From a virus: 64,000 bases of DNA. The notes under the pieces were generated by a model that did not search any database, was not told where the DNA came from, and saw only the letters and a program-made list of their open reading frames with translations. Each line of letters begins with the position of its first letter. The first letter of the stretch is position 1. Made by a program: the position numbers and the translations under genes. The stretch lies in IMG/VR virus record IMGVR_UViG_3300029922_000055, positions 1 to 64,000 of that record; one strand, written 5' to 3'. Below, one piece after another: positions 12,008-62,732 of this stretch.

Positions 12008-12035
12008 AAATCTCCAAAATGGTTAATAGTAAATT

Positions 12036-12212
12036 CTAGATAAAACTTAAATCATCTGACTCTAAATCTTCTTCATTATCAAAAAACTTATCATCAATAG
12101 ATTCTACGTCACGTTTTTCGGAAAGTTTGTGCATGTGTGCGAAATCTTCCGGAAATGGATTATTCTTAATTATTTCATCAAACTGGTCGAAAGAAAAATT
12201 TTCACTTTCCAT
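12036..12212 (-). CDS. Hypothetical acidic protein, 58 aa
   Basis: Not recognised. The start at 12212 (MESENFSFDQFDEIIKNNPF) has GGAGACGA just upstream and overlaps the end of the holin-like gene by 11 bases. The longer frame from 12248 has no SD. The protein is strongly acidic with a D/E-rich C-terminus (FDNEEDLESDDLSFI), as in small DNA-mimic or regulatory proteins. A DNA-mimic role is only a possibility. Confidence 0.6.
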   Translation of the reverse strand: MESENFSFDQFDEIIKNNPFPEDFAHMHKLSEKRDVESIDDKFFDNEEDLESDDLSFI

Positions 12213-12474: not shown

Positions 12475-12490
12475 GTTTAGTCTCCTTTGG

Positions 12491-13705: not shown

Positions 13706-13709
13706 ATAA

Positions 13710-14258
13710 CTATTTAATAAAAATATATGCAACCAAAAAAGCGAGCCCAACACCAAAACCTATACCAGAATCTCTCCAAAAATGTTCTTCGGAAACTCTT
13801 ACATTTTTCAAAGAATCTACATTAGTTTTCATTTCGGAAATAGTCTCATCAGCATTTTTAACATTATCTAAGCAAATTCCTAAAAGCGCGGAATCTCTTT
13901 CCATCAAGTATTTTGCTTCTATAGCTTGCTTGGCTTGGTCTTGAGAAATATCTAAAAACTTTGTAGTGTCTTTTGAATAATAAACACTATCAAACAACGT
14001 GACTTTTTTTGCAGAATCTTTTCCGGAAAATACTGAGTCAAGATTTCCAGAAACTTTTTCGAAATGATTGACCACGACTTTCTGCTTGACTATTACAGTA
14101 TCATGAATATAACTCTGCCTATCTTTGTATAATGTATCTACTCTTGCAACAACATTTTGAATAATTTTGGATTCTTTTGGTTGAAAAAATTGCTTCCCTC
14201 CAAAAAACCCTATTAGCAAAGCAACAACAATTAGCACCCACCACATTTTTGTATTCAT
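13710..14258 (-). CDS. Membrane protein with periplasmic helix, spanin-like
   Basis: 182 residues: a strong N-terminal membrane segment (WWVLIVVALLIGFFGGKQFF), a long polar helical region with many D, K and V residues, and a second hydrophobic end (GIGFGVGLAFLVAYIFIK). An anchored N-terminus with an extended periplasmic helix is the plan of inner-membrane spanins, which help disrupt the outer membrane at lysis. The second terminal segment is unusual for that family, so the call is tentative. It overlaps regA by four bases and ends five bases before tnpB. Confidence 0.6.
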   Translation of the reverse strand: MNTKMWWVLIVVALLIGFFGGKQFFQPKESKIIQNVVARVDTLYKDRQSYIHDTVIVKQKVVVNHFEKVSGNLDSVFSGKDSAKKVTLFDSVYYSKDTTKFLDISQDQAKQAIEAKYLMERDSALLGICLDNVKNADETISEMKTNVDSLKNVRVSEEHFWRDSGIGFGVGLAFLVAYIFIK

Positions 14259-14632
14259 GTCAATGTCCTCGGATTAAATTTAGGCTGAATTAACCAATCT
14301 TTTTTCTCAGCATTAGATAAAGTAAAAATGAATACCGTATCATTTTCTTCTGGGAGATTTAATATTTCTATCATATCCCAATCTTCTAAAAGTAAAGCGA
14401 CCGAGTTTCTTCTCAACAAATCATCTTCGGAAAAATTATTAAAGCTTGGTCGAGTAGAGCGCAACAAAAACATTTCTTTGAAGTGACAAAGATAATAATG
14501 AGAGTCTATGTCTTTGTAAAGGTGACAGGAAGGATATAAGATTTTTCTTTTCTTATCTCCTACACCCATTCTCATCAAAGTTTCGTTTATAATATTTTCA
14601 TTAACTTTCGGAATAATTTCTAACAAATCCAT
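14255..14632 (-). CDS. regA: RegA translational repressor
   Basis: The 125-residue protein aligns with T4 RegA along most of its length: ETLMRMGVGDKKRKILYPSC corresponds to the RegA segment around residues 18-37, HFKEMFLLR to HFKEML, and RRNSVALLLEDWDMIEI to the RRDSIAWLLEDW region. RegA binds ribosome-binding sites of early phage mRNAs and represses their translation. In T4 it sits in the replication cluster. Here it lies between a tail-tube-like gene and a membrane-protein gene, which is unusual. It begins directly after the preceding stop. Confidence 0.85.
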   Translation of the reverse strand: MDLLEIIPKVNENIINETLMRMGVGDKKRKILYPSCHLYKDIDSHYYLCHFKEMFLLRSTRPSFNNFSEDDLLRRNSVALLLEDWDMIEILNLPEENDTVFIFTLSNAEKKDWLIQPKFNPRTLT

Positions 14633-15163
14633 TTAACAGTCCCCAGGTTCTACCCTTAAAAACTCGTAAGCAATAGTAGTAGAAAATGTTATTTCTTCGT
14701 CTACTCCATTTGTCATAGATAGTGAACCTAAATCTGTTAAGAAAGCATTCTCGAAAATAAATTTCATCTTAGTTCTTTTCATATTATCTAAAAACAATAA
14801 TTTAAGTTCCTTTATGCAATTCAATCTAAAATATTTCTGACTATCCATATTATGCTCTTCTCTCAATTCACTAATCCAAGTTCTAAAAATAAGATAATTC
14901 ATACATCCTTCGGAAACTTTGAAATCCATAGTAATAGAATTCAAATCATCATTTATTTTAGATACGGGATGATTGATAGAATAGTTCATAAAATTTGATT
15001 TTACTAATTCTAAAGTATATGAAGGAAACGTTACCGACTTTACATAATTATCGAACAACGACATATCATTTATATAGGCGGAAATAGTTGGAGAGAAGCC
15101 AGGAATATTAGAAAATACGGCTTGCCATTTATCGCTGTGTTGAACATTTGGAAAGCCGGACAT
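14633..15163 (-). CDS. gp19-like tail tube or tube-initiator protein, 176 aa
   Basis: The pattern of a beta-rich body with KELKLLFLDNMKRTKMKFIF followed by ENAFLTDLGSLSMTNG and a closing strand (EEITFSTTIAYEFLRV) is typical of T4 gp19-type tube proteins and their paralogs. It is one of three such proteins in the window and lies far from the other two, at the baseplate end of the tail module. It may therefore be a specialised tube or baseplate-adaptor protein and not the main tube subunit. Confidence 0.65.
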   Translation of the reverse strand: MSGFPNVQHSDKWQAVFSNIPGFSPTISAYINDMSLFDNYVKSVTFPSYTLELVKSNFMNYSINHPVSKINDDLNSITMDFKVSEGCMNYLIFRTWISELREEHNMDSQKYFRLNCIKELKLLFLDNMKRTKMKFIFENAFLTDLGSLSMTNGVDEEITFSTTIAYEFLRVEPGDC

Positions 15164-15177
15164 AAAATTATTCTAAC

Positions 15178-15681
15178 TTACTTCAAAAGGTCTGCAAAAG
15201 ATTCTTTCACAAACACCTTCAAAGGTTCCCAAACATGCTTCTCAATCTCTGTTGGAAAATGTTCGAAAGAAATCTTGGGCAATTCTACTTCAATCTCTTC
15301 TTTAAGAAATGCTTCAAATTCTCTTTTAGCAGTTTCAAACTTTTCAATAGCGCCTTTATGTGTGGTCACCAAGTCTTCAATTTCTTTAGATGCCAATTGA
15401 ATAGATTCTTGAGGAACTTTTACTTGGTCGTTGGTTACAATAGCATTTCCAGCAGCATCCTTTTCGGCATACTTAGACAAAATTGACACTCTAAGATTGT
15501 TAAATTTTGCATACTCTTCCGAATAAAGCTCTCTAGTTTTATCTTCAATTTCTTTTACAATAGGCTCTAAAATAGTTTTTGCATGTGTTATAGCAAGCAA
15601 AAAATACTTGTTATAAATTTTCACATCAAGTTCTGAAATTTTCTTACTCAAATTAAAAAGGGTTTCCCTGCTCAAGTTCAT
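15178..15681 (-). CDS. Hypothetical helical protein, 167 aa
   Basis: A largely helical protein with the layout seen in many small phage proteins of unknown role: long N-terminal helices (KIYNKYFLLAITHAKTILEP), a KYAEKDAAGN turn, then an acidic region (FLKEEIEVELPKISFEHFP) near the end. Its neighbour behaves as a shorter relative: both have the K-x-x-Y-x-x-E-D/Y-x-K-F segment and the ending V-E/Y-I-x-L-P. A chaperone or assembly role next to the fibre gene is possible. Confidence 0.65.
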   Translation of the reverse strand: MNLSRETLFNLSKKISELDVKIYNKYFLLAITHAKTILEPIVKEIEDKTRELYSEEYAKFNNLRVSILSKYAEKDAAGNAIVTNDQVKVPQESIQLASKEIEDLVTTHKGAIEKFETAKREFEAFLKEEIEVELPKISFEHFPTEIEKHVWEPLKVFVKESFADLLK

Positions 15682-15686
15682 GTGTA

Positions 15687-16076
15687 TTACTCCTTAGTTA
15701 TCAAAAAAATTGTCTCAAGTGTTTCTTTATCGAGTTCCGTTATGTCATCCGGAAGTTCGGAAATATTTATGTAAACAAGATTTCCGGAAAAAATTTTCGA
15801 AAGATGTTCTTCAAACTCTTTGTTCCTTTTTTCTTGTGTCTGTATTGCTTCCGAAAATTTAGAAATTACTTCAGATTTATTTTCCGAACTATTGTATTCC
15901 TGGGAAAACTTTACATAGTCTTCTGCATATAGATTCTTCTTTAACTCTTCTATTATTTGAAACTCTGATTCTACAATTTTCTTATTTTGCAGAATCTTTG
16001 CTTGAATACTTATAGAAAAACTTTTAGGAATCTTTTCGAATAATGTGTAGATTTTTTCGATTTGTTTTAGTTTCAC
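15687..16076 (-). CDS. Hypothetical helical protein, 129 aa, relative of its neighbour
   Basis: Helical, charged protein (MKLKQIEKIYTLFEKIPKSF...) with LYAEDYVKFSQEYN, then an acidic stretch ending in ISELPDDITELDKETLETIF. Length, order of features and position match the 167-residue gene next to it, suggesting an old duplication. It overlaps the fibre gene by four bases (ATGA), so it may be made together with the fibre. A fibre assembly factor is one option, but there is no direct evidence. Confidence 0.65.
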   Translation of the reverse strand: MKLKQIEKIYTLFEKIPKSFSISIQAKILQNKKIVESEFQIIEELKKNLYAEDYVKFSQEYNSSENKSEVISKFSEAIQTQEKRNKEFEEHLSKIFSGNLVYINISELPDDITELDKETLETIFLITKE

Positions 16077-19000
16077 GATAACTTTATTCCTGAAATTACT
16101 GAATGGGTATTACTATTCACAAACAACCCAGTAGATATTGCGGTTTGTGTTCCTGGGCCATATTTAATATTATTATATGGAGATGGAAGAATGGCAAAAA
16201 TCTGGCTAACGTCTCCTGCGCCCCGACCTGTTGTTGCTGTTACTGAAACAGTTCCAGTAGTTTGAACGTCATCATAATTATCATCATTTTGAAACATTAT
16301 TCTAGACCCATAATTAGATTCTGCAACGGTGCTATTATATAAATTGAAAGAACAAACCCCGTCACCATTTATTGGACTCGCGTTTATAATCGTGGTTACA
16401 TTATTGTTGGGTCCTTTATCGTAAGAAATAAAAGAGTCTATAATATTTAAATTTTGTATCCAATTTATTATATGTAAATCTTCTCCAGTGTTACTATTGC
16501 CGCAATTTGTTTGATATATTGTGTTTGAATTGTCTGGAGTAAATGTATATGGTATTGGAGAACCTAGATTAGTAGCATTATACACAAAAAATATAAGATC
16601 GTTTGTTGCTCTATTTAATGAAATACTTATATTATATATTGTTCCAGAAAAGAATGAAACTCCAGGAGTACATATGATTTGGCCGCCATTTCCACCATTA
16701 GAAAGTTTGTAATATGTAGTAAATGGATTCGCGGTAGCTATTAAAACATCGGCCCCAATAGTTCCAAATGGAGAACCAATATTAAAAATATTCGTATTAT
16801 ATCCAGTTTCCGTAAACGTAATAACTCTACGATACCCAGCCCTAGAAAAATCAACAGAAAACGTTCTAGCGACATTTCCTGGGGTGGTTCCTCTTGCACC
16901 CGTAGAAAAATTTATAGCAAGTCTCATAGAATCATTTAATTGAGATATGCCAGGAATAGTAACTACTGAATTAGAACAATTTCCCCCAATTTGAATGTTT
17001 GCTCCTTGAATTAGAACATTATTCGAACAACCGCCAATAATAATTTGGTTGTTTTGTGTTGTAGAAACATTATTTCCAATAGCTATAGAATTATCATATG
17101 CCGCAAAAGATGTATTTCCTAATGCTACAGAATATTTTCCTCCAGCATTGTTTATATATCCTAAAGCTACAGAATAATCTCCTCCAGCAATTGAACTAAA
17201 ACCACCAGCAATTGAATCTATACCAATCGCAGAAGTGTTTTCATTAAATGCAAAGGAGTTTGTGCCGAAAGAAACTGTGTTCACGCCGACAGATAAGGAA
17301 TTGTCGCCATGTGCATACGTAGTATTTCCAAAACCAAATGAATTATTTCCATCAGACAATACTTTATAACCAAGAGCAAAACAACCTGTTCCAAGAATTG
17401 CAGATGTTCCTTGACCAATAGCGACAGAATTTACACCATTTGATACCGTCATCGCTAGATATGGATTCGACAAAGGATTAAAATTTTGGCCAATGGCTAT
17501 AGAATTATATTGTGATGCTAGAGAATTCGTTCCTAAAGCAATTGAATAAGAAGTAGTCGCACTTACATTTTGGCCAATTGCAATAGCTAATGGTGTAGAT
17601 TTACTTCCCAACGAACTGGCTTGAGCGTTTACACCATATACAAAATTATATGGGCCAAATGCAGAAACGTTACTACCTAAAGCAAAACCAACATCCGACA
17701 TTGCTACAGAATTTATTCCACCAGCAATAGAAAATACACCGTTTGCTAATGTTTGTTGACCCAACGAAAATGAACCAAACCCTAACGCAGATGTCAATAT
17801 ACCATGTGCAAAAGAAACGCCCCCACCAGCATATGTTTGAAAGCCAAATGCCACATTAGACCCATCTGCGTCTTCCAACATATTGCCAGCCAGTTGAATA
17901 TAATCAAAATTTGTTGGGTTCGCTCTAGAAATCGCGGTTACAGATTTTCCATAAGCAAAATTTAATCCGTTTATTGGCGTAACGTTTAATCCAGGGTCCG
18001 CTCCGCCACCGTATAAAAGATTCAGAGATGCTAATGAACTATCGCCACCCGCAAAATTCAAATATCCGATTGATGACGTATTATATCCTAACGCAACAGA
18101 GCCGAAGCCTTGCGCTAAAGATTTGACGCCTATAGAAACGGTATATCCGCCTTCGCCACCGATGTCAACTTCTGCGGACGTAGTATTGCCATTTGTCGTG
18201 GAATATCCAGTGGCGGAGGCATAACAACCTATTGCTACAGATTTAATACCAAGAGCAGATGTTTGATATCCTAATTGAAGCAAAGAATCTTGAGGACAAC
18301 TAGTATCAATTGAGAGCACCGCCATATCAGTAGAATTAGGAAAAACTCCACCAATGCTAATCGGAAATCTTATTGTTCTGAAATCGGTAAACTTAGTCAT
18401 ATCATAACCAAGTCTAAGCTGTTGTTTAGATGGTTCGGTAACTGTTAATTTCGCAGCAGGAAACCACGATCCACCCACAGCGGAAGAAGATATTACAATG
18501 TCTCCAGTATAATTTAACCCGGACGCGGAAGTTGTGGTAGATGTAGGAAGTTTTACCCAATAGTTATTGTTGATATAAATTGGATTTCCAGAAACTCCAG
18601 GAGAAACCGTGTTCCAATCAAACCCCAAATCTACACTAATTTCAAAATCGTTTATTCCGCCAGTTTGTGATTGTTTGAATTGAGCTTGGTTTAAGAGAAC
18701 AACCGAAAATAGAACTGGATTAAATGCGAACGCCACCCCATTTCCATAATCATCGATTCCGTTACTATTGACTTTTACCGCATATAACGCTAAACCATTA
18801 AACTTAAAAGAACTATTAGATGGAGGAATGCGACACTTGAATGTTCCTGTAGCGCATGTTAATCCATTAGCATTTGGAGAATATGAATCAACTCTATAGA
18901 AAGCAGATAGTGGCCAATTAGTTCCAGAAATAGGATTATATGTAGAAACTTGCCCAGCAGTATATTGGTGCGTTCCTGAAATGTTAAAAAATCCTGGCCC

Positions 19001-44656: not shown

Positions 44657-46426
44657 TTATCCCTCACTCACGGAAACAGAGTCCGAAGAAATTGTTACTG
44701 TCAAACTAATAAACTCGATTGTGTATGTTGGCTGAATATATACAGCAACATTTAAGATATTCTGAGCAATGGTTGTAGAAGTGTTATTCGAATTATCACA
44801 AACAACTCCGAAACTCTGAACACCATTTCCTGCAAGAACACTAGAAAGGAACGCATTTATTAAAGAACTTACACGCTCCCTAGCTTTCACAGTATTTCCC
44901 GTGAACAAGAATCCATTAAGAATTGAAGTAATATTGTCCTCTACATAAATCAACATCTTTCTTACATTCAATCTATCTCTAGCAGTTGTAAGAAGTTGTG
45001 CAGTCTTTTGTCCCCAAATAACTCCGCCAATTCCATTTAAGAACTTGATAGTGTTTAGGTTATATTGGTTGTAAAGAGGACCAGCTTGTGCAGGAGTCAA
45101 GTTTACATTCTGAGTGCCCGAAGGAAGCTGACCAACAGCAATACCAGCAGGAGCATCCCAAGGATTACCAACACGACTAGCTCTTAAAGAAACTTCAGCA
45201 CCATAAATTCCATTTGGCAAGTAAACTCGAACTTTATTGTAACGATCAAACACTAAGTTCCATCCGACATATTTTCCGAAATAACTTGGATTAGATGCTA
45301 CAACAATATTTGAAGAATCTTGTATGATAGCGTTTACCGAAGTAGATGTTAAAGCTGTTGCCTGAATGTATCCAGTAAAATCTAACCTTTGACCAACCAA
45401 AGAATCTAAAGCAGCAATTTCATTAGGATCGGAATAAGAATTCATGGTTCTAGGAGTTACAAAAGCAACATCTACCGGAGAAGTTTCTTTATTAGCAAAC
45501 AATCCCCAAACAGTTGATGCATTTATCGGAGAGAGAGTTCCGGCATCATTTCCACCAGTCAACCCAAAAGCAGTAGTAGTATAAGCAGGAAGAGTCCCAT
45601 CAGTCTTATTACTAGTAACGTAAACATAATTTGAATTCCCATTGATAACAGATTGAATAAACAAATCATTCCCATTAGGATCGTTGTCTAGGAAATTTGT
45701 AGACCCATACCAAGTCTCTACAGGTGAACCAGAAGTTAATGACCACCAAGTAGCATCAAAGTTCTGATTAAAAAGCTTTGTGAAAACCTGAACCTTAAAA
45801 ACTCTATTTCCAACCCTTGAAGCAGCAGAAGAAATAGCAGTGGAATCATACTTGTTATACCAGTCATAGAAACCAGATAAACTAGTTGCGGAAATTGCAG
45901 GTGTCCAAACAGCTACGGCAATGTTGTTTCCAGTAGCGCCAGGACCAATAGCAGCGAATCTAAGACCAGCAGGAGAACCATTATAGATAGTCAAATCGTA
46001 ATTATTGTTTGGCAAGTTCCCATCAGGAAATCCAGCAATGTTAGGATATGCCGTAGAAGCAGCAGCAGATACGGTTCCATATGTTCCGGATGTCGCAGCA
46101 GATGAATTGGTGGGGACAGTTACGTTTGCATATGTCTCGGTTCCATCTGTCAATCTAACGTAATAAAGATTGGTAGTTTCTCTTAAAGCTTCTATCCCAG
46201 CATAAATCCCATAGTCTATTGCAGAAACTAATGGATATGAACCAGACACCATCGGAATACCAAATGTCTGAACTAGTTGTGATTCGCTCTGAACCAAAAC
46301 CTTTGAATTGGGAATGCCCTGAAATGCCCTTCCCATTACCGCCGCATATGACGCATTAGGATTTGACGGAACAAAAGAATTATCTATCTCTTGTAAATAA
46401 GTTCCTGGATAAGTTCCTACAGCCAT
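44657..46426 (-). CDS. gp18: Tail sheath protein, gp18-like
   Basis: 589 residues. YPGTYLQEIDNSFVPSNPN near the start, GRAFQGIPNSKVLVQSESQ, and a C-terminal region beginning GIGGVIWGQKTAQLLTTARD with LNVRKMLIYVEDNITSIL and the final strand TIEFISLTVTIS are all conserved in contractile sheath proteins. The protein forms the contractile tube around gp19. Two late-promoter boxes lie upstream, one an exact TATAAATA. Confidence 0.95.
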   Translation of the reverse strand: MAVGTYPGTYLQEIDNSFVPSNPNASYAAVMGRAFQGIPNSKVLVQSESQLVQTFGIPMVSGSYPLVSAIDYGIYAGIEALRETTNLYYVRLTDGTETYANVTVPTNSSAATSGTYGTVSAAASTAYPNIAGFPDGNLPNNNYDLTIYNGSPAGLRFAAIGPGATGNNIAVAVWTPAISATSLSGFYDWYNKYDSTAISSAASRVGNRVFKVQVFTKLFNQNFDATWWSLTSGSPVETWYGSTNFLDNDPNGNDLFIQSVINGNSNYVYVTSNKTDGTLPAYTTTAFGLTGGNDAGTLSPINASTVWGLFANKETSPVDVAFVTPRTMNSYSDPNEIAALDSLVGQRLDFTGYIQATALTSTSVNAIIQDSSNIVVASNPSYFGKYVGWNLVFDRYNKVRVYLPNGIYGAEVSLRASRVGNPWDAPAGIAVGQLPSGTQNVNLTPAQAGPLYNQYNLNTIKFLNGIGGVIWGQKTAQLLTTARDRLNVRKMLIYVEDNITSILNGFLFTGNTVKARERVSSLINAFLSSVLAGNGVQSFGVVCDNSNNTSTTIAQNILNVAVYIQPTYTIEFISLTVTISSDSVSVSEG

Positions 46427-46488: not shown

Positions 46489-48114
46489 TTAGTTATAACC
46501 ATTTCCGAAATATATATCATTGTTTTGAGAGTTTTGGAAATTTTGGGGGGTATCTTGGAAATCGTTTGAAAAAGCATTTCCGAAAAAGTTTGAATGAATA
46601 TCTTCCGAACTTAAGAATGTTGGAACTTCTTCATCTGAACCTTTATTAGATTTTCCGGAATCTTTTGCATTAGTTGTTGCATCATAAAATCCAGAGATTA
46701 GATAATACAACCCAATCCACATGGAACAAACAGTATCGTCATTTTCGTTTTGTCCAATTGCTTGCCAAACTCCAGGATTTTTCTCTTCAAATCTACTCAA
46801 TTCATAGAGAGTCTTCATATCATTTATTTGAAGCCAACCATTTTCTATATACTTTTTCATTAGCAAAACACCTGCTAGTTTTGTTTTTTTTGTAGAACGA
46901 ATACCTAGGCCATTCTTATCGAAATTTATAAGTTTGTCACAATCGTATTCGTAAAAAATCTTATCACAAACCAATTCTCCTATATCATTACTTTCAACCA
47001 TCATCTCTGCTTTATTATAATATTCTGAAATACCCACACATATACCAGCAAACGTTTCCGGGTCGGTTTCATTATTGCGAAAAACTGCAACTTGGTCTAT
47101 ATCTTTTTCGGAATTTATTTTTAATACTTGAACAACAGAATAATCAGAACCAGTGCCTCTACTTGGATCGACCCCTAATACATATTCACAGCCATCTATA
47201 GGTAATTCATATATCAGCATTGCTCCATTGTATTTATTTTCTATTGGTGTTCTTGTATCTATTCTTTCTAAAATTCCAGGAGTTATTAAGGTATTTGAAC
47301 TTCCTTGGAATTGGCCCTCATGCTCCTGAAGGAACGCTTGTGTTGTCATATCTTTTTTTGTATCTTCTGCCCATTTTTCATCTCTATCTGGATGGTCTCT
47401 CCAAGTTATTTTAATAGGATAAAAATTGTTTTCTCCTTTAACTGCCTTTGAATAAATTTCATAAAAATGATTCAAGCCTTTTGGCGTAGATACCATAATA
47501 AGCTTTGATTTTTTTCCAGATGACATAATAGAATAAACAGAATTCCAAAATTGCTCCCAGATATGCGGTGGCACGAAACTTGCTTCGTCAAGAAAAACTA
47601 ATCCTGAAGTTTTTCCACGGACAGAATCTGACGAACTAGAAGCAGCTAAAATAGTCATTCCGTTTTCAAACTGAACAGAATTCTTATTCCAACCGCCATT
47701 AACAACCCCTTTTTGAAGCCATAGAGGAAATTTCTGAATCGCTATTTTAATTTTTTCCAAAGTATCTTTGGCTGTTGCTTCTTTGTTTGCTAATATAATA
47801 ATATTGTCATCTTTTTCAAATAGAGAATAATGAGTAAGAAAAATACTAGTCATCATCCCCTTCCCGACCTGCCTAGCTGCCAGAAGACATATGTGTTTTT
47901 TTCCATTTGGGGGATCGGACATAGCTTTTAATACTTTTTTTTGATATCCATACAATTTTACTAATTGCCTACCACCATCAATAGTTTGAATATAAAAATA
48001 ATGTTCCGCAAAATATATTATATCATTTTTACATTTAACATATTCGTCTATTTGTTCTTTCGTTATTACTACCTTTTCTCCAGCGGCGCGAAGGGATGGG
48101 TTTCCTTGATACAT
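46489..48114 (-). CDS. gp17: Terminase large subunit, gp17-like
   Basis: 541 residues, slightly shorter than T4 gp17 (610). ATPase half: Walker A AARQVGKG (79-86), where the usual final S/T is glycine, Walker B LVFLDEAS, and STPKGLNHFYEIY. Nuclease half: GVDPSRGTGSDYSVVQV with the first catalytic aspartate, and MMVESNDIGELVCDKI. It drives DNA into the head and cuts it. The start overlaps the stop of the GIY-YIG gene (TAATG). The ATG is followed by a plausible N-terminus (MYQGNPSLRAAGEKV). Confidence 0.93.
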   Translation of the reverse strand: MYQGNPSLRAAGEKVVITKEQIDEYVKCKNDIIYFAEHYFYIQTIDGGRQLVKLYGYQKKVLKAMSDPPNGKKHICLLAARQVGKGMMTSIFLTHYSLFEKDDNIIILANKEATAKDTLEKIKIAIQKFPLWLQKGVVNGGWNKNSVQFENGMTILAASSSSDSVRGKTSGLVFLDEASFVPPHIWEQFWNSVYSIMSSGKKSKLIMVSTPKGLNHFYEIYSKAVKGENNFYPIKITWRDHPDRDEKWAEDTKKDMTTQAFLQEHEGQFQGSSNTLITPGILERIDTRTPIENKYNGAMLIYELPIDGCEYVLGVDPSRGTGSDYSVVQVLKINSEKDIDQVAVFRNNETDPETFAGICVGISEYYNKAEMMVESNDIGELVCDKIFYEYDCDKLINFDKNGLGIRSTKKTKLAGVLLMKKYIENGWLQINDMKTLYELSRFEEKNPGVWQAIGQNENDDTVCSMWIGLYYLISGFYDATTNAKDSGKSNKGSDEEVPTFLSSEDIHSNFFGNAFSNDFQDTPQNFQNSQNNDIYFGNGYN

Positions 48115-48779
48115 TATTTTATTCTTTGTCCTGGTTCAAAACTCCAACCAAGCTCTTTCCAAGTTTTTCCAATATCACTTTCTTTCAAATCTTTATCATA
48201 AAAAAGACTCCAAGACTTAACGGTATTATCGTTAATAAATCTACATCTATTTCTAATTGTAATTCTACTTAAACCGATTCCTTTATTAGCAAATATTAAA
48301 GATTCGAACTTTCCATATGGCGTAATATAATATCCAATAAATCCAGTATGTTTTGCTCCTGGGTATTTTCCTTTCTGAGCGATTGACATTTTAAGTTTGT
48401 CTTCTGGAAGATGTTGGCGACCCCGTTGTAAATTACCCATTTTAGTTTTATGTTCTTCCGTATGGTGTTTACCTTTGAAACCATTAACAGAATATATTTT
48501 TCCACCCTTACCACCTAATTGTAAATTATATATATCGTCTCTTTTTAAAAATTCTTTATTTACAATCTCAATTTCTTTGTTATAAGCTTCTTCTTTGTTA
48601 TCAAACTCAAAAAGTATATCTTTTCTAAAATTTTTTCTGCCATATTTTTTAAACGCGAATTTTAATGCTTTTCCGCTGCCCTTATAATAATGGTCACGCG
48701 AATCCGAATATTTATGAACACCAATATATATTTTTCCGTTTACTAAATTCGTAGTTTGATAGATGTAATATTTCTTCAT
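48114..48779 (-). CDS. GIY-YIG homing endonuclease with NUMOD3-like motif
   Basis: 221 residues. KYYIYQTTNLVNGKIYIG is the GIY-YIG core in Y-I-Y form. A conserved YKGSGKALKFAFKKYG stretch and E/N residues follow. HTEEHKTKMGNLQRGR is a NUMOD3-type DNA-binding motif, and SLIFANKGIGLSRITIRNRC fits a NUMOD1-type helix-turn. Free-standing enzymes of this type (Seg family in T4) cut related genomes lacking them and spread by repair. It sits directly before the large terminase gene, and no intron is visible. Confidence 0.88.
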   Translation of the reverse strand: MKKYYIYQTTNLVNGKIYIGVHKYSDSRDHYYKGSGKALKFAFKKYGRKNFRKDILFEFDNKEEAYNKEIEIVNKEFLKRDDIYNLQLGGKGGKIYSVNGFKGKHHTEEHKTKMGNLQRGRQHLPEDKLKMSIAQKGKYPGAKHTGFIGYYITPYGKFESLIFANKGIGLSRITIRNRCRFINDNTVKSWSLFYDKDLKESDIGKTWKELGWSFEPGQRIK

Positions 48780-48923: not shown

Positions 48924-49274
48924 ATGAATAAAAATCCAGAAGAATTCCAAAAAGAACTTAACATGCTTTTGATAGAGCCTTTTCTAGAAAATTTAGAAAA
49001 AATTCCAGCAGTCGATATAGAAAGGGATTTCAAACTTTTTCTAATAAGCATAAATTACAAAAACAAGATTCAAATGGATATAAGAATTTACGAAAAACAT
49101 ATAGATTTCTTTTGGTTTGATAAAGATTGTAAACTGTTTGATAATGATAGCTTAAAAATTTATAAGCACAATTTCAAATTATGTTTAAGAGAAGCATTAG
49201 CATTTACAGCAGATAATATATTGGAATTGAAAAAGGAGGCTATTAAGAAAAGAAGAAATTTAAGAAGACACTAA
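48924..49274 (+). CDS. Hypothetical protein, 116 aa, inverted-pair copy A
   Basis: Not recognised. It is the rightward partner of a tail-to-tail paralog pair. Both proteins are 116 residues and align end to end: NPEEFQKELNMLLIEPFLEN against STNFQKELNVMLVDSFFEDF, and both end in K-R-R-x-L-R-R-H. The C-terminus is very basic, which suggests nucleic-acid or membrane contact. It is read from a strong early promoter with almost no leader, whereas its twin is read from the other side. Confidence 0.78.
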   Translation: MNKNPEEFQKELNMLLIEPFLENLEKIPAVDIERDFKLFLISINYKNKIQMDIRIYEKHIDFFWFDKDCKLFDNDSLKIYKHNFKLCLREALAFTADNILELKKEAIKKRRNLRRH

Positions 49275-49275
49275 A

Positions 49276-49626
49276 TCAATGTCTCCTCAAAATTCTCCTA
49301 CGTTTAACCAAAGTTTTCTTCATGCTCTTAAAAACTGCCGTCCAATTTTCTAAAACACTTTTAAAATTTTCTATATCCCAATCGTAGGCAAAATAGAAAT
49401 CATCCTCATCAAAAACTTGGTGCCATTCATTAAAATGATTCACATGAAAATATTTCGAAAACACTTGGACATGCATTCTCACACGGCCTTTATAAATTAC
49501 TCCTATATGTAGTTGTTCTAAATCTGGCAAAACTTCTACGCCTCTTATTTTCTTAAAGTCTTCAAAAAAGCTATCTACAAGCATTACGTTCAATTCTTTC
49601 TGAAAGTTCGTAGAATTTTTCTTCAT
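49276..49626 (-). CDS. Hypothetical protein, 116 aa, inverted-pair copy B
   Basis: Leftward twin of the preceding gene, separated by a single base between the two stops. It has the same length and the same conserved ends (FQKELN near residue 8, RRRILRRH at the end), while the middle has diverged (HVQVFSKYFHVNHFNEWHQV). It lies at the end of the cassette of MSFK-type genes and might be co-transcribed with them. Function unknown. Confidence 0.78.
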   Translation of the reverse strand: MKKNSTNFQKELNVMLVDSFFEDFKKIRGVEVLPDLEQLHIGVIYKGRVRMHVQVFSKYFHVNHFNEWHQVFDEDDFYFAYDWDIENFKSVLENWTAVFKSMKKTLVKRRRILRRH

Positions 49627-49663: not shown

Positions 49664-49981
49664 TTAATGAGAAAGTTTCATCAAATGTTTTCTAGTATCT
49701 TTTTCTCCAACAGGTGCGTCATATACGTTATCACTATTGAAAAACTTGAATTTTCTTTTGCCATTTTCTTCTAGTTCTGTAGTTTCTAACCATTCTCCAG
49801 AGTTAATTTCTTCTTCGTGGGTTTCGTTCCATTGTTTCATCTCTGTATAGGAATGATTTAGAGAAAATAGTTTTAGCAATTCATGGGTCTTTTTATTTCG
49901 CATTCCATAACCAATTTTAGAACGACCTGGAAATTTATATTCAGATTCTTCCATTAGTTTTCTGTAAAGTTTGAAGCTCAT
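49664..49981 (-). CDS. MSFK-cassette protein 4, 105 aa
   Basis: Starts MSFKLYRKLMEESEYKF. The opening matches the other three cassette members and ends in L-M-E-E, compatible with T4-type prohead protease cleavage (L-x-E). The rest is charged, with KTHELLKLFSLNHSYTEMKQ and a lysine-histidine tail. It overlaps the preceding gene by four bases. The function is unknown. By analogy it may be packaged in the capsid, but no head genes are visible here to test this. Confidence 0.7.
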   Translation of the reverse strand: MSFKLYRKLMEESEYKFPGRSKIGYGMRNKKTHELLKLFSLNHSYTEMKQWNETHEEEINSGEWLETTELEENGKRKFKFFNSDNVYDAPVGEKDTRKHLMKLSH

Positions 49982-50289
49982 GGAAATACCTTATTTAATT
50001 TTTCTTCTATATCGTTTCTGGAAGCTTCTAAAATGTTTTCTCCATAAATTTCGTCAAACCATTCTCTTGAAAGAACATTTTCCCGATTTTCAAGAACTAA
50101 CATTAGAGAATCTTTATCACCTTCCTCAAGCAAAAGCAACCACTTATCATACCATTTTTGCTGAGATTCTTTAATAACATTTTTAGAAATCTTTCCGAAA
50201 TAGCCTTTAGAATAGTATTTCTCAAAGACTGATTCAAAGATTTCTTGTTTGTCTGTTTTAGCTTTGTAATAGAAGTGTTTAAATGACAT
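49978..50289 (-). CDS. MSFK-cassette protein 3, 103 aa
   Basis: Starts MSFKHFYYKAKTDKQ, sharing the M-S-F-K-x-F-Y opening but lacking the cleavage-type glutamate. The body is helical and acidic (KWLLLLEEGDKDSLMLVLEN). It overlaps the last gene of the cassette by four bases. Only eight bases separate it from the kinase-like gene before it. Function unknown. Confidence 0.7.
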   Translation of the reverse strand: MSFKHFYYKAKTDKQEIFESVFEKYYSKGYFGKISKNVIKESQQKWYDKWLLLLEEGDKDSLMLVLENRENVLSREWFDEIYGENILEASRNDIEEKLNKVFP

Positions 50290-50297
50290 GAAATTAT

Positions 50298-50930
50298 TTA
50301 GTGTTTCTTTTTCGAATAGTGTGTATTAGCTACTGTATTATTAAACCCCAAATCAAGCAACCTAGCTTTTCCATTAAAATCTCCCCAAGAAGCCAGTCTA
50401 CAAATATCTCCTGGAGGCATATCAAAGTTTATCATTAAATCTACTACTTGATAAACTATAGAGTCCTCGTCATTCAGCATTTCTTTAGTTTTTTCGGATA
50501 TATTTTCCTTTTTTATTTTTCCGCGATAATCTAAATCAGCTTCGGAAATAGCTTTTGTAAAATCTTGCCAAGAAACTTTCGAAAGAGCTTGAAATTTGCT
50601 TGGAGTCATCTTGGTTCCTTTTTTCATAATCAACCAAGAACAATCATCTTCTTCATCTTTATCAATCAATTCAGAAATAATATCAGGATACATTTTTTGC
50701 ATTCCCCAATCGCCTTCTGTATTGTTCTGGTCATATCCCTTTTCGTTTTTAGCAAGTTTTAATACATTTCCGTCACCCATGTCATATACAATTCTAGAAG
50801 ATCCGGTTCCAATTTTCGGAAAGTATCTAGCAACGTATTGAGCCTTTTTCGAAAAACTTTGAAAAGTATCTATAGAATCTTTATTAAACTTTTCTTCATC
50901 TTCTTTTAAGTAGAATTTTTTGAAAGACAT
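50298..50930 (-). CDS. Kinase-like fold protein A with capsid-targeting-like N-terminus, 210 aa
   Basis: After MSFKKFYLKE comes a glycine-rich loop IGTGSSR (residues 40-46), a strand with lysine NVLKLAKNEKGYDQN (K58), a hinge-like SWLIMKKGTKM, and near the C-terminus D193-L-G195, in place of the kinase D-F-G. I recall this G-x-G-S-S-R...V-L-K-x-A-x-N-x-K-G-x-x-Q-N pattern from uncharacterised phage proteins. No H-R-D loop is seen, so it may be a pseudokinase or an atypical kinase. It is paralogous to the next gene upstream (three-base gap). Confidence 0.7.
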   Translation of the reverse strand: MSFKKFYLKEDEEKFNKDSIDTFQSFSKKAQYVARYFPKIGTGSSRIVYDMGDGNVLKLAKNEKGYDQNNTEGDWGMQKMYPDIISELIDKDEEDDCSWLIMKKGTKMTPSKFQALSKVSWQDFTKAISEADLDYRGKIKKENISEKTKEMLNDEDSIVYQVVDLMINFDMPPGDICRLASWGDFNGKARLLDLGFNNTVANTHYSKKKH

Positions 50931-50933
50931 AAT

Positions 50934-51569
50934 TTATTTCCTATGTTTCTTATAAAAAGTGTTAAAAAAATCCTTCTGCAAACCCGGATCGAGTATAACT
51001 AATCTATTTCCAATTTTTCCCCATGAAGACGTTTTAATTACATCACCAACAAGCAATCCTAAAGAGAATGTTAAATCCTGAACCAAATCTAAGAAGTGAG
51101 AAGTTTTTAATAGTTCTTTGGTTTCTTCTGAGACATCTTTCTTTTCTTTGTAATTAACTAGTTTCATTTCTTTCATAGCTTTTTGAAAAGTTTTGAAAGG
51201 TATTTTAGAAATCTTTTCGAAAGTTTCCTCATCAACTGGCTTGGCTTTTTCCATAACTATCCAATATATTTTATCACCTTGACATTTCTTTTTTAATGCC
51301 GGAACCAAATCTCCGAAAAGTTTATGGATTTGATCTGACTGTTCCATCAAATTTTGGCCTAATCCTTTTTCGTTCCAGGCCAATTTCAATACAGAATTTT
51401 TAGAAAGGTCGAATACTAATCTGGAACTACCTTTGCCAATTTGATTTAGATTTTCTTTACAAAATTTAATTTTTTCTTCAAATGTTTCTAAAGAATCTAA
51501 ATGCACGAAATTGAATTTACTTTCGGCAAGTTTTTCAGATTCTATTAAATAAAAATTTCTAAAAGCCAT
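50934..51569 (-). CDS. Kinase-like fold protein B with capsid-targeting-like N-terminus, 211 aa
   Basis: First gene of the cassette. It starts MAFRNFYLIESEKLAESK, where Y-L-I-E fits a T4-type prohead protease site. Glycine loop IGKGSSR (44-50), SVLKLAWNEKGLGQN with K62, hinge-like IYWIVMEKAKPV, and C-terminal D194-P-G196 align with protein A over the whole length. Some positions of the DFG-like motif differ (DPG against DLG). AAGGA serves as SD, and a late-type box lies 30 bases upstream, supporting synthesis during head assembly. Confidence 0.7.
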   Translation of the reverse strand: MAFRNFYLIESEKLAESKFNFVHLDSLETFEEKIKFCKENLNQIGKGSSRLVFDLSKNSVLKLAWNEKGLGQNLMEQSDQIHKLFGDLVPALKKKCQGDKIYWIVMEKAKPVDEETFEKISKIPFKTFQKAMKEMKLVNYKEKKDVSEETKELLKTSHFLDLVQDLTFSLGLLVGDVIKTSSWGKIGNRLVILDPGLQKDFFNTFYKKHRK

Positions 51570-51598: not shown

Positions 51599-51606
51599 AT
51601 ATTTAT
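51599..51606 (-). promoter_or_regulatory. Late promoter-like box
   Basis: ATAAATAT on the minus strand, 30 bases before the first gene of the MSFK cassette, in a 66-base gap. It matches most of the T4 late consensus. Confidence 0.45.
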
Positions 51607-51635: not shown

Positions 51636-52172
51636 TTACTTTATTTGAGAATCTACTTCGAAATCAACTTCTATAGCATCCAATTGGTTATTATTTTTAG
51701 CATTTGAAATAGACTTTGAAATAAGATTGTCAAGTTCATTTGAAGAGAGATTGAATGTATTGTTGTTCTGAATATTTTGCGTAATGTTTCCAGTGCGTAT
51801 TTGAAATGAATTTTCTGCTCTTAATACATTTAGTTCTAGGTCGGCAACATTAACACACATTTTTCTATATTCTACTACCAAATCTTTACATTGGGAGACT
51901 AAAATTGAGTAAGATTCGATCATACTTGCCGAGAAACCGGGACGGGCCAATTCTTTTTCAACAATATTTTTAACCATCGAGGCAGAATTTAATAATTGAA
52001 CTAATTCTTTTTTAATTATATCTACATCTTGAATTTCAATTTTATTTTTATTATATTTCTCGGTCTGTTTTTCTAAATCTGTTAAACTAGCCATCACTGA
52101 ACGTTCTTGAACAGGTTCGGAAAAATCATTTTCAAAGCTAGTGTCAAGTTTTTTTGAAAGTCCATCGATCAT
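51636..52172 (-). CDS. gp16: Probable terminase small subunit, gp16-like
   Basis: 178 residues, near T4 gp16 (164). The order of features agrees: an acidic N-terminus, a helical core with IIKKELVQLLNSASMVKNIV and LARPGFSASMIESYSILVSQ, then IQNNNTFNLSSNELDNLIS, comparable with the T4 segment IQNATVFMGSPTELMDEI. gp16 forms a ring that recognises DNA and stimulates gp17. It is coupled to the upstream zinc-ribbon nuclease gene by four bases. It lies 3.5 kb from the large subunit, not next to it. Confidence 0.65.
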   Translation of the reverse strand: MIDGLSKKLDTSFENDFSEPVQERSVMASLTDLEKQTEKYNKNKIEIQDVDIIKKELVQLLNSASMVKNIVEKELARPGFSASMIESYSILVSQCKDLVVEYRKMCVNVADLELNVLRAENSFQIRTGNITQNIQNNNTFNLSSNELDNLISKSISNAKNNNQLDAIEVDFEVDSQIK

Positions 52173-53143
52173 TTTTTCAAACCCTCTAAGAACTCTATAA
52201 TTATATCCTTCATTACAAGTTTGTCTGTATATTTTATTTCTAATAATTCTAAATCAGAATCGATACACCATTTCTTTTTTGTATAATCACTTAATTTAGT
52301 TTCTTCTAAGTTTAATATAGCTCTATCCATAGATATTCCACCAAAAGTTGTTGGAAAATAATGCTGAATTCCTTGATATTCTATTAAGCATAAAACTTTT
52401 TCAAACTCATCCAAAATAGCAAAATCAAATCTCAAAACAGCTTTTAGCTTACATTTAGAATTTTTATATTGGGGTTTATTTTTAATATCTAATTCTTTGA
52501 GAATATTAAAAATTGATTTTTCTCCTGTCGAACTTTTACACTTAGGACAACCGCATAATTTATATTTACTTAAGTGGTCATGAGGTCTTTGTGAAAATTC
52601 ATATTTGCACACATTACAAATTAAATTTACTGGAGTATCGGTATTTATATAATGAACGTTTGAATAATCAAAAGCATCGGAGCCATGTTTATTTTTAGAT
52701 TCTTGTATAAATTCATCTTGTGTTGTTCTATTAACGTCTTTGTTTTTTTCAATTGCACATTTTTGACAACCACATTTTTTAATACCTGTATGATCTTGCG
52801 GAAATTGCCAAAAATATTCCTGACAATCATTACAAAATATCTTTATTTTAGTATAATTATTTTTATAATATACTTCAGAATAATTATATTTTTCTGTTCC
52901 GTGTATACTTTGGGCATACACAATATATTCTTTCGTAGTTCTTCTCTTAAGATTTTTACATTCAGAGCAGCCACATCCATTTATGTGATGGCCTGGAAAT
53001 TGCCAAAACTCGTGCCCGTTTGGACAAATTATTAAAACCTTGTATTTATTTCCTTTATAAACTGCTTTAGAATAATCAAAAATTTCATGGTGTGTTGCGT
53101 TAGCTTCATCTTCAAACATTTCTTGTGTTTTCATTTTAGTCAT
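52169..53143 (-). CDS. Zinc-ribbon repeat endonuclease (DUF723-type with Vsr-like nuclease end)
   Basis: Three repeats of about 60 residues each contain Y-x-Y-S-x-V-x-Y, I-x-C-x-x-C/G-H, a W/R-Q-x-P-x-x-H segment and G-C-x-x-C, as in DUF723-type zinc modules that bind DNA. The last 120 residues (VLRFDFAILDEFEKVLCLIE, YQGIQHYFP, SDYTKKKWC) resemble the EDxHD/Vsr-like nuclease of phage homing endonucleases. It is located just before the small terminase gene. The start has GGGAGA as SD. It is probably a selfish element. Confidence 0.82.
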   Translation of the reverse strand: MTKMKTQEMFEDEANATHHEIFDYSKAVYKGNKYKVLIICPNGHEFWQFPGHHINGCGCSECKNLKRRTTKEYIVYAQSIHGTEKYNYSEVYYKNNYTKIKIFCNDCQEYFWQFPQDHTGIKKCGCQKCAIEKNKDVNRTTQDEFIQESKNKHGSDAFDYSNVHYINTDTPVNLICNVCKYEFSQRPHDHLSKYKLCGCPKCKSSTGEKSIFNILKELDIKNKPQYKNSKCKLKAVLRFDFAILDEFEKVLCLIEYQGIQHYFPTTFGGISMDRAILNLEETKLSDYTKKKWCIDSDLELLEIKYTDKLVMKDIIIEFLEGLKK

Positions 53144-53387: not shown

Positions 53388-54764
53388 ATGAAAAGTTTAA
53401 TTTTGAGTCTTTTAATTCTGGTAGGTCTTTCAAAAGCTGCTGATATAAATCTTTCTGGAAAAATTGATTTATCTCAAGCCGGGCGCTCAGCAACAGTTTC
53501 TGTAGTAACATCGACAGGGCTTGTAGGAAGTGTTTCGCAAGATGGTACTTATACTATTACAGGAACAACATCACTTCGTTCTACAAGCATTCAGAAAGAT
53601 TCTCCAAAGATTTCTTGGAAAACTTTCGGAAAAGAGTTGCAAATTACTGGAGTAGGAAATTCGGAAAATTATACAGTAGATGCTTGGACTATTGATGGAA
53701 AGAGTGTCGGGGTTCGAGTTCCTTTCCAAAATGGTATTGCAAAGTTTCCCACATCTTCAGAGAAAGTTTTCGTAAGACTTAACCATTCTGGAAACTCTAT
53801 GAATGTTGCTTCTAGGAGGTTAGTAGATTCAACTTTGGGAACTGTTTACTTTATTGTAAACGATCCTAGCAATGGGGTTGTAAATGATACCCTTGTAGAG
53901 ATTCCTGTTACAAATTGGATTGGGGTTCTTGGTCCTAAGTATATTGTAGGAAGAAATGTAGATGTAACTGTTCCTAATGCTTTTGTAGGAGATACTGTTA
54001 AAGTTGGTTGGTTTAATGTTTATACAAATCCTAGCAACTATTATAGCACCGTCCTAGGAAGATCTTATTCAGGTTCTTATAGCGGATTTGTTTATACTGC
54101 TTATGATTCGGCAAGTTTCGGAAATAATTCTTATCTTTATTCAGCAGTGTCTATCATCAAAAATGGAGATTCTGTAGTAGCTTTTTCGAAAGATCTTGAC
54201 ACAGTTACTGCAAAGGTAGGAAATTTTAAGTTTGATTCTAGCCGATTTGTTACTAAAATTCTTTCGGCACTTGATACTACTTTGACCATCCCTTGGTATG
54301 CGTTTTCTTTGAATGGAACATCTGTTAGTCTTTATTCTAGCGTTGTAAAGCATTTGGATAGTGTCGTTACTTTCGACACCATCACAACGAAAGAAGATAC
54401 AACTGGAATGTTTTTCTCAATATATTGGCAAAAAGTAGAAACATTAAACCATGATACTAGTTTTGAGATTACCGACACAATCATTTCAAAAAAATTATTC
54501 GGAGCATTCATTCATGAAAAGACACACAATCTTCCAGACACATTAAGCATATCGGTTAATGATTGCGGGGCTGAAGAGCTTGTGTACGGGGTCAATTCTT
54601 CTATTGATACTACAATTTTCCTACCAATAAACAATGGGACAAATGGATGCTTAGATCTACAGACGACGAATAGAACGGCAATCATGGGATTAAAGACATA
54701 TAACGCATACACATATATTCAAACAAGCATAGTATATGCTATAACCAAAAAATATTACAAATAG
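53388..54764 (+). CDS. Secreted beta-rich protein with signal peptide, 458 aa
   Basis: The start MKSLILSLLILVGLSKAADI is a typical Sec signal peptide, probably cleaved around residues 17-18. The mature protein is beta-rich, S/T/V/N-rich and contains five cysteine-poor strands-and-loops regions. Near residues 98-145, VDAWTIDGKSVGVRVPFQNG leads into a segment resembling the sorting-type beta domains of secreted bacterial proteins. It is read rightward from its own early promoter with a strong SD (AAAAGGAG), opposite to the surrounding virion genes. It would be exported from the infected cell to periplasm or surface. Such isolated cargo genes often alter the host. The function is unknown. Confidence 0.8.
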   Translation: MKSLILSLLILVGLSKAADINLSGKIDLSQAGRSATVSVVTSTGLVGSVSQDGTYTITGTTSLRSTSIQKDSPKISWKTFGKELQITGVGNSENYTVDAWTIDGKSVGVRVPFQNGIAKFPTSSEKVFVRLNHSGNSMNVASRRLVDSTLGTVYFIVNDPSNGVVNDTLVEIPVTNWIGVLGPKYIVGRNVDVTVPNAFVGDTVKVGWFNVYTNPSNYYSTVLGRSYSGSYSGFVYTAYDSASFGNNSYLYSAVSIIKNGDSVVAFSKDLDTVTAKVGNFKFDSSRFVTKILSALDTTLTIPWYAFSLNGTSVSLYSSVVKHLDSVVTFDTITTKEDTTGMFFSIYWQKVETLNHDTSFEITDTIISKKLFGAFIHEKTHNLPDTLSISVNDCGAEELVYGVNSSIDTTIFLPINNGTNGCLDLQTTNRTAIMGLKTYNAYTYIQTSIVYAITKKYYK

Positions 54765-61693: not shown

Positions 61694-62065
61694 CTATTCC
61701 TCTGGTTCAATTTTCTTTAATAACGAATAATAATTAGGAACTTGCTTCAAATGATCCTTAGCAATTATTTCGGCAATTAGTGGTTCATCGCTATGTTCAG
61801 ATTCTTCTTTAATTCCAGATTTTAATTCTTCTTTATTTCCAGTAAACTTTTCGTAACGTCTATAAAGAAAATGGTTCAATATTTCAAAAACCATTTCGAA
61901 AATTTCTTCCGGAGTTTTGTCATTCTCTTTGGCAATTTGTTCTAGTTCTTTTATAGTTACTTTCTTATCAAAATTAAACCTTTTAATAAGTTTTGCTTTA
62001 AGAATGTCCGATTTTTCTTTAAGACTTTTTTGAGAACTTTCTTTAATGTATGTCGTTAGGTTCAT
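61694..62065 (-). CDS. DUF5661-like protein with capsid-targeting-like start, 123 aa
   Basis: The last 40 residues, GIKEESEHSDEPLIAEIIAK and DHLKQVPNYYSLLKKIE, fit the pattern E-x-E-H followed by I-A-x-x-H-L-K-E-x-P-x-Y-Y-x-x-L found in DUF5661-type proteins of unknown function. The N-terminus MNLTTYIKESSQ has Y-I-K-E, compatible with I-x-E cleavage by a T4-type prohead protease. The middle is helical and charged. AGGA provides an SD, and the start overlaps the HNH reading frame by four bases. Confidence 0.68.
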   Translation of the reverse strand: MNLTTYIKESSQKSLKEKSDILKAKLIKRFNFDKKVTIKELEQIAKENDKTPEEIFEMVFEILNHFLYRRYEKFTGNKEELKSGIKEESEHSDEPLIAEIIAKDHLKQVPNYYSLLKKIEPEE

Positions 62066-62732
62066 TCGTAGTATCCTAAAATAATATTGAGTATGTAAAC
62101 TAATTCTGAATTTTCGTAAACGTAATCTAAAATATCATCTGATTTATGAATATTTTCTGACCCTGGAAGCCATTGAAGATTACGAGGAAGATGAGCTAAT
62201 CTAACATGCTCCGGATTATCTAAATCAAAAATAGAAATTGGAATAATATGATCTAAATGCATTCTTTTCCTGGACCTGGGCCTTGTCCAACTTTTTCGAA
62301 AATTGTTTCAAAATCTATTCCGTATTCTTTACAACTCTTTGTCTTACCATTTTTCGAAAAATATTTAAATGCTTGAGATATTCTACATCTAAGTTTTCTA
62401 GTTAAATCATATTTATGATCTCTTGTCCGTCTATTTCTATCATATAGTTTTTTATTGTTTAATATATTTTCTTTATTTTCTATTCTCCAATTTAATATTT
62501 TTTCTTTATTTTCCGACGCATATTTTTTATAATATGGTTTGATTTTTTCTTTATTTTCAACAGAATAAATTCTATGTTTCGCGTCTATTTCTTCTTTATT
62601 ATCTAAATAATATTCTTTGCCATTTTTATGACAACAATCTTTACAAACTTTTCGCATTCCATCCAAACAATCTTTTCTTTTGGTAAATTCTGATTCGTCT
62701 TTTAATTCATGACATTGATTACATTCACGCAT
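62062..62732 (-). pseudogene. HNH endonuclease split by a -1 frameshift
   Basis: The first 159 codons encode a zinc-ribbon start (CNQCHELKDESEF...CKDCC) and a charged linker with repeated K-E-K-I/N units, ending shortly after GQGPGPGKE at a TAG. In the -1 frame, overlapping the last ten bases, MHLDHIIPISIFDLDNPEHV and LPRNLQWLPGSEN supply the HNH core (L-D-H, N-L-Q-W-L, N). One added A in the GGAAAAGAATG run would restore a full protein of about 225 residues. It is either an inactivated gene, a frameshift site (slippery AAAA), or a sequencing slip. Confidence 0.75.

What the first reader, a model, noticed from the sequence alone, without database searches (positions are those of the whole stretch)
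49664..51569. Four-gene cassette with a shared N-terminal tag like the T4 capsid-targeting sequence
Seen: four adjacent proteins start MAFRNFYLIE, MSFKKFYLKE, MSFKHFYYKAK and MSFKLYRKLMEE, then diverge fully. Known: T4 internal proteins carry MKTYQEFIAE, which directs them into the prohead and is cut after I-x-E or L-x-E by the gp21 protease. Three of the four have L-x-E at the right place. Inference: these proteins are packaged inside the capsid and injected with DNA, making this a candidate effector cassette. Two micro-genes at 7.1 and 8.0 kb (MKTYETFVYWD, MKTFETFYRWD) and the 61.7 kb protein (MNLTTYIKES) have related starts.
Basis: partly seen in the sequence, partly recalled or inferred. 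Interest (0 to 1): 0.8.

Follow-up and report, generated by a model that had tools for sequence, protein, structure and literature searches.

The report
Capsid-loading tags on phage effector genes
This uncultured T4-like virus of bacteria appears to mark a set of unrelated proteins, including kinase-like enzymes, with a short removable start tag that loads them into the virus head, so that they can be injected into the next cell together with the DNA.

Summary
Four adjacent minus-strand genes (49664-51569) start MAFRNFYLIE, MSFKKFYLKE, MSFKHFYYKAK and MSFKLYRKLMEE. The two largest do not "diverge fully": they are full-length paralogs with a predicted kinase-like fold. The micro-genes at 7-8 kb do not belong.

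Close relatives (mostly 83-95% DNA identity) extend past the window. They carry a gp21-type prohead protease (E 1e-20), a T4-type scaffold and a gp23-type capsid protein. Beside these lie more tagged proteins: a three-paralog family, an ADP-ribosyltransferase-like protein, an acetyltransferase-like protein and DUF5661.

Across 13 phages the kinase's tag differs and tends to match tags of non-homologous neighbours in the same phage (P 5e-4; control positions null). As outside validation, in cyanophage S-CREM2, with a published virion proteome, a T4-type tag marks 5 of 15 virion-detected non-structural proteins, one a kinase, against 2 of 127 undetected ones (P 1e-4).

Best reading: a phage-specific capsid-targeting sequence that loads an effector cargo, a new variant of the T4 internal-protein system. 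Packaging, cleavage and injection in this phage are inferred, not shown.

The parts
50934..51569 (-). Kinase-like protein A (211 aa), start MAFRNFYLIE
   Evidence: phrog_4301 E 1.7e-12; AlphaFold with 14 homologs pLDDT 83.7, residues 1-15 disordered; kinase-like fold matches
51540..51569 (-). Predicted capsid-targeting tag of protein A, cut predicted after LIE-10
50298..50930 (-). Kinase-like protein B (210 aa), paralog of A, start MSFKKFYLKE
   Evidence: phrog_4301 E 4.6e-10; 35% identical to A
50901..50930 (-). Predicted tag of protein B, cut predicted after LKE-10
49978..50289 (-). 103-aa protein of unknown function, start MSFKHFYYKAK; no [LI]xE before IFE-19
   Evidence: no family or phage relative; conserved in L001 and L002
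49664..49981 (-). 105-aa protein of unknown function, start MSFKLYRKLMEE, cut predicted after LME-11
   Evidence: no family or phage relative
61694..62065 (-). DUF5661 protein, start MNLTTYIKES (MKFTTYIKES in a relative), cut predicted after IKE-9
   Evidence: PF18905 E 3.9e-8; a tagged DUF5661 also in L023
50295..50301 (-). Late-promoter-like box CTAAATA upstream of the 103-aa gene
   Evidence: box type upstream of 22 of 73 minus-strand genes against 2.9% of random 40-mers
51600..51606 (-). Late-promoter-like box ATAAATA upstream of protein A
46489..48114 (-). T4-type terminase large subunit next to the cassette (lineage marker)
   Evidence: phrog_2 E 5.5e-53; 35-39% identity to T4-like cyanophages and a pelagiphage
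44657..46426 (-). Tail sheath protein (context)
   Evidence: phrog_23 E 6e-45

Best explanation
The four proteins carry a phage-specific capsid-targeting sequence that works like the T4 one. During late infection the 10-11 residue tag (aromatic residues at positions 3 and 6 or 7, hydrophobic-x-Glu at the end) binds the scaffold core of the assembling prohead. The phage's gp21-type protease then cuts after the Glu of L/I-x-E, freeing the folded body inside the head, and the bodies are injected with the DNA at the next infection. The cargo of this phage group comprises two kinase-like proteins, two small proteins of unknown fold, DUF5661 and, in close relatives, ADP-ribosyltransferase-like, acetyltransferase-like and a large three-paralog family. 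These probably modify or inhibit host proteins before phage genes are expressed. Shown here: the shared tag, gp21/scaffold/capsid genes in close relatives, covariation of tags within phages, and the tag-packaging association in S-CREM2. Inferred: packaging, cleavage, injection and effector activity in this phage.
For: T4-derived start pattern enriched; independent profile ranks all four genes high; gp21, scaffold and Gp23 in close relatives beside further tagged genes; tag covaries with neighbours' tags across 13 phages, P 5e-4, with null controls at other residues; Slicko01 has eight consecutive genes with a shared tag, one an ART-PolyVal, and encodes gp21; the T4-type tag marks 5 of 15 virion-detected against 2 of 127 undetected proteins in S-CREM2; tag disordered and body folded in the model; late-promoter-like boxes; peptide rather than DNA conservation.
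Against: No virion data for this phage. The own record lacks gp21, which is seen only in relatives. The 103-aa protein lacks the early cut motif. Pattern-free test null on the own record. The bodies are not basic like the T4 IPs. The S-CREM2 pattern test is post hoc, and 10 of its 15 virion-detected non-structural proteins lack the tag.
Confidence: 0.82

Rival explanations
1. Packaged but not injected: the tag recruits these proteins to the scaffold core, where they act in head assembly or DNA condensation, as the T4 core proteins gp67 and gp68 do.
For: The tag and protease logic is shared with core proteins. A charged 246-aa tagged protein, MSKLSFEKFLLKES, lies beyond the window.
Against: Kinase-like folds and ADP-ribosyltransferase-like and acetyltransferase-like relatives suit host modification. 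Gene content varies between close relatives, unlike essential core genes.
Confidence: 0.1
2. The shared starts are ordinary inheritance: duplication of one gene followed by divergence, so the resemblance is only ancestry.
For: Two of the four are true paralogs.
Against: Bodies of the other two and of the relatives' tagged proteins are unrelated. The start alone covaries across phages while other residues do not. Ser2 codons differ between genes.
Confidence: 0.03
3. The tag is another kind of address, for instance to the membrane or to a tail or baseplate part, not to the head core.
For: Localisation is not measured. The cassette lies beside terminase and tail genes.
Against: L/I-x-E is the gp21 cut motif, gp21 is encoded, and the same tag type marks virion-detected enzymes in S-CREM2.
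Confidence: 0.03
4. Chance resemblance of AT-rich gene starts.
For: Singly no start is unusual and the unsupervised test on the own record is null.
Against: Enrichment in relatives with unrelated bodies, covariation across 13 phages, independent S-CREM2 test.
Confidence: 0.02

Closest known systems
T4 internal proteins IPI/IPII/IPIII with the 10-residue capsid-targeting sequence, and Alt
   Same: Short shared N-terminal tag on unrelated bodies, L/I-x-E end, gp21-type protease, gp22/gp23-type head, late-promoter-like boxes.
   Different: Tag sequence differs (MSFK/MKFxxY instead of MKTYQEF); bodies are not basic and include kinase-like folds; packaging not shown.
Virion-associated kinases and enzymes of T4-like cyanophages (S-CREM2, S-CRM01, S-TIM5)
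   Same: Kinase-like proteins; in S-CREM2 virion-detected enzymes with a T4-type tag.
   Different: S-CREM2 ORF14 is 755 aa and homology to the window kinases was not shown; the published paper does not mention a tag.
phrog_4301 / jumbo phage 'putative protein kinase' (121Q, RaK2, Munch)
   Same: Homologous body with G-x-G-S-S-R loop, Lys and D-x-G.
   Different: 121Q and RaK2 copies lack a comparable tag.
Polyvalent proteins of phages and conjugative elements
   Same: The same domain types (kinase, ADP-ribosyltransferase, GNAT) predicted to be packaged and injected (PMC5512222).
   Different: Here the domains are separate proteins joined by a common tag, not fused into one chain.

Membership tests
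T4-type capsid-targeted internal proteins | Short shared N-terminal tag on otherwise unrelated proteins | tested here: met
   Three unrelated families in the cassette plus others in relatives
T4-type capsid-targeted internal proteins | Tag ends in L/I-x-E | tested here: met
   Met in three of four (LIE-10, LKE-10, LME-11) and in DUF5661; not met in the 103-aa protein before IFE-19
T4-type capsid-targeted internal proteins | gp21-type prohead protease encoded | tested here: met
   Peptidase_S77 E 9.7e-21 in close relative L022; absent from the own fragment
T4-type capsid-targeted internal proteins | gp22-type scaffold and gp23-type capsid | tested here: met
   T4_CASP E 1.5e-9 and Gp23 E 1.9e-70 in L022
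T4-type capsid-targeted internal proteins | Present and cleaved in the virion | not testable with these tools
   No virion data; indirect support from S-CREM2
T4-type capsid-targeted internal proteins | Injected into the host | not testable with these tools
   Needs experiment
T4-type capsid-targeted internal proteins | Basic body, as in the T4 IPs (typical, not defining) | tested here: not met
   Net charge of bodies between -6 and +7
Protein-kinase-like superfamily | Glycine loop, catalytic-pair Lys, D-x-G | tested here: met
   G45, G47, K62, D194, G196 invariant in 14 homologs
Protein-kinase-like superfamily | Kinase-like fold | tested here: met
   Foldseek prob 1.00, E 4e-5 to APH(2''); structural Z up to 8.0 with APH, MPS1 and PRPK; TM about 0.4, so a distant match
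Protein-kinase-like superfamily | Catalytic-loop Asn | tested here: not met
   Asn in the distant homologs, Ser in both window copies and their ortholog; activity uncertain

The most novel reading that the evidence does not exclude
Across the T4 superfamily each phage lineage has its own head-loading code word, co-evolving with its scaffold, and uses it on ten or more interchangeable effectors (kinases, ADP-ribosyltransferases, acetyltransferases, nucleases). Reading the code word in any genome would list that phage's injected arsenal. The kinase copies of the window phage have lost a catalytic residue and may act by binding rather than phosphorylation.
Probability: 0.5. Interest if true: 0.82.

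Novelty: new variant of a known kind. Interest (0 to 1): 0.68.

Why it matters
What a phage injects besides DNA is known for very few phages. If a phage-specific N-terminal tag marks the injected proteins throughout the T4 superfamily, the injected arsenal of many uncultured phages can be read from sequence, and each candidate tested for counter-defence or host take-over. The tags could also serve as loading signals for phages other than T4. The S-CREM2 result suggests that the rule already works on existing mass-spectrometry data.

Tried and rejected
Micro-genes at 7.1 and 8.0 kb as tagged proteins: rejected, no cut motif, part of a tandem micro-gene set.

Unsupervised pairwise similarity of N-termini in the own record: no excess over internal positions. 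Reported as a negative; the signal needs the motif or the relatives.

Single-sequence AlphaFold of the kinase-like protein: useless, pLDDT 40. Redone with 14 homologs.

PDB sequence search: one weak N-lobe match to a kinase with alignment A3 (E 0.0012), lost with the larger A4; not relied on.

Pfam, PHROGs and NCBIfam for the 103- and 105-aa proteins: nothing significant; no phage relatives.

XacN1 virion proteome for its tagged kinase ORF170: the main text does not name it; supplements were not available.

The first covariation run counted one kinase against itself and was redone.

PF03420 search of the own record: nothing, but the record is a fragment.

Full report
What the window is. The window is positions 1-64000 of a 67,680-base IMG/VR virus record classed as a virus record that may be a fragment. 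Its terminase, sheath and baseplate genes are of phage myovirus type. The terminase is 35-39% identical to those of T4-like cyanophages and a pelagiphage. No DNA relative was found in the annotated phage collection for 45-60 kb.

The observation. The four ORFs and their starts are real. Two corrections are needed. The genes at 50298 and 50934 are homologous over their whole length, so their shared start alone proves little; the independent comparisons are among kinase pair, 103-aa protein and 105-aa protein. The micro-genes near 7-8 kb do not fit. The MNLTTYIKES protein does (DUF5661).

Is it more than chance? A pattern written from the T4 tag (two aromatic residues three apart, then [LI]xE) matches 3 of 76 gene starts in the own record, all in the cassette, against 0.2% of internal positions (P 6e-4). 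In the adjoining region of a close relative it matches 6 of 19 (P 3e-10; three of these are paralogs). A profile built only from tagged proteins outside the cassette ranks the four genes and DUF5661 4th to 8th of 76. Singly none stands out, and a pattern-free pairwise test on this record alone is null. The case therefore rests on the set and on relatives. The MSFK starts use different serine codons (TCT, TCA, AGC), which argues for conservation of the peptide rather than copied DNA.

Close relatives supply the missing genes. L001/L018 (one 50-kb contig), L002, L021 and L022 align to this record or to each other, mostly at 83-95% identity, and continue beyond the record's end. L022 encodes a prohead protease of the gp21 family (Peptidase_S77 E 9.7e-21; phrog_207 E 3e-44), a T4-type scaffold (T4_CASP) and a gp23 capsid protein (Gp23 E 2e-70). 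The capsid protein has an LTE at residue 51, in its presumed propeptide region. Between these and the neck genes lies a run of tagged genes: MKTLVEYIESLLLES, MKFADYIGMLAES, MKFSEYITE, MRFLEYLKLNES, MKFGQYIELFED, MKFSQYLNED and MQKDYQEFLADLLED; further on come MSKLSFEKFLLKES and MKFTTYIKES. Apart from one three-paralog family their bodies are unrelated. One is ADP-ribosyltransferase-like: it aligns with tagged Slicko01 and L034 proteins and keeps H-x-T, S-T-x-R and E-x-E; this is a motif-level call. One is weakly acetyltransferase-like, below the Pfam cut-off. Gene content differs between close relatives: the GNAT-like gene in L021 carries the same 30-nt leader that precedes the next gene in L018, so genes appear to be swapped in and out.

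The kinase-like family links many phages. Searches gave homologs in Slicko01, XacN1 and further IMG/VR contigs. Their starts differ, and they often resemble those of unrelated neighbours in the same phage. Examples are MKFADFLLTEA with MKYKDYITES, MKYKDFLNEN and MKYSQFLIES; MRAFEFLTE with MRASEFIVE and MRAKDFIDE; MKLDNLYRTLIQEA with MKIDQLYESLLG and MNIDQLYTTLTES. Across 13 phages the best neighbour match at residues 2-9 exceeds that expected when loci are shuffled (P 5e-4). The same test at five other residue ranges gives nothing. Some loci (L025, L026, XacN1) show no matching neighbour in the stretch held. In Slicko01 eight consecutive genes share MKIxxLYESLLEE-like starts, one of them with an ART-PolyVal domain (E 2e-11), and the phage encodes gp21 (E 2e-22). 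In two contigs (L031, L032) the tagged kinase lies beside genes that look like scaffold and capsid (by inspection of the sequence only). The 121Q and RaK2 homologs lack a comparable tag.

Outside test. In cyanophage S-CREM2 the virion proteome was measured (PMC10665884). I read the starts of 152 of its genes. Five of 15 non-structural virion proteins match the T4 tag spacing: SAM hydrolase MKDFDSFLEE, kinase MKRFDAFLTE, cytidylyltransferase MKNFSSFLTE, and two unknowns, MKDLHSFLTE and MQTFSMFFSE. Two of 127 undetected proteins do (Fisher P 1e-4; 4e-5 to 1e-3 for the three pattern variants tried). The paper does not mention a tag, and a library search for capsid targeting with cyanophage found only a T4 review. 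This is a post hoc but independent link between such tags and packaging.

Structure. With 14 homologs AlphaFold gives a confident body (mean pLDDT 83.7) and a disordered first 15 residues, as expected for a detachable tag. The nearest solved folds are aminoglycoside phosphotransferases and protein kinases, distant matches. The glycine loop, lysine, catalytic aspartate and D-x-G are conserved, but the catalytic-loop Asn is Ser in both window copies.

Mechanism. By analogy with T4 (review PMC9026906), the tag should bind the core, with residues 4 and 7 of the T4 tag directing targeting and residues 8 and 10 directing cutting. gp21 then frees the body, and bodies leave with the DNA. In T4 such proteins block type IV restriction enzymes (PMC12373910) or modify RNA polymerase (Alt). 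Late-promoter-like boxes upstream of cassette and virion genes fit late synthesis.

Verdict. The system is a variant of a known one. What is new is the phage-specific tag, its spread over enzyme-like cargo in uncultured T4-like phages, and evidence that the rule predicts packaged proteins in an existing dataset.

Noticed in passing
64278-65018 of the own record (L010:4278-5018), just beyond the window: A 246-aa charged protein with start MSKLSFEKFLLKES, no confident family; may be a prohead core protein or another cargo protein of this phage.
   Followed up: partly
window 6783-8364, minus strand: Tandem array of about nine micro-genes (35-72 aa), several sharing a D-F-x-K-x-F-L-like motif; two begin MKT[YF]ETF but lack a cut motif.
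   Followed up: partly
window 48924-49274 (+) and 49276-49626 (-): Two paralogs in opposite orientation share a start with FQKELN; a third paralog in L001 (11685-12020) has LIE near residue 20 of its second Met, so they may carry a longer tag.
   Followed up: partly
upstream of minus-strand genes throughout the own record: T4-late-promoter-like [ACT]TAAATA boxes within 40 nt upstream of 22 of 73 minus-strand genes against 2.9% of random 40-mers.
   Followed up: partly
window 48114-48779, 52169-53143 and 62062-62732: Homing endonuclease-like genes flank the terminase and the cassette; their number and type differ between close relatives.
   Followed up: no
window 53388-54764, plus strand: A 458-aa protein with a signal-peptide-like start, encoded against the direction of all neighbouring late genes and kept in L001.
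   Followed up: no
window 12491-13705, minus strand: Start MTKRAYKYRIYPTEEQK looks like a TnpB/IS605 OrfB protein (recognised by eye, not searched).
   Followed up: no
L037:7704-10313 (S-CREM2 ORF12, Cas9-like, virion-detected): A tag-like stretch RFASFMAEA lies at about residues 18-26, so the annotated start may be too early or the tag internal.
   Followed up: no
L023 (end of a 527-kb contig), 8837-18509: Several proteins with tag-like starts (MKFSEYLITSE, MRTFKEYVSLKEA, MNFKQFFES on a DUF5661, MKFKQWLAEV) in a very large phage.
   Followed up: partly
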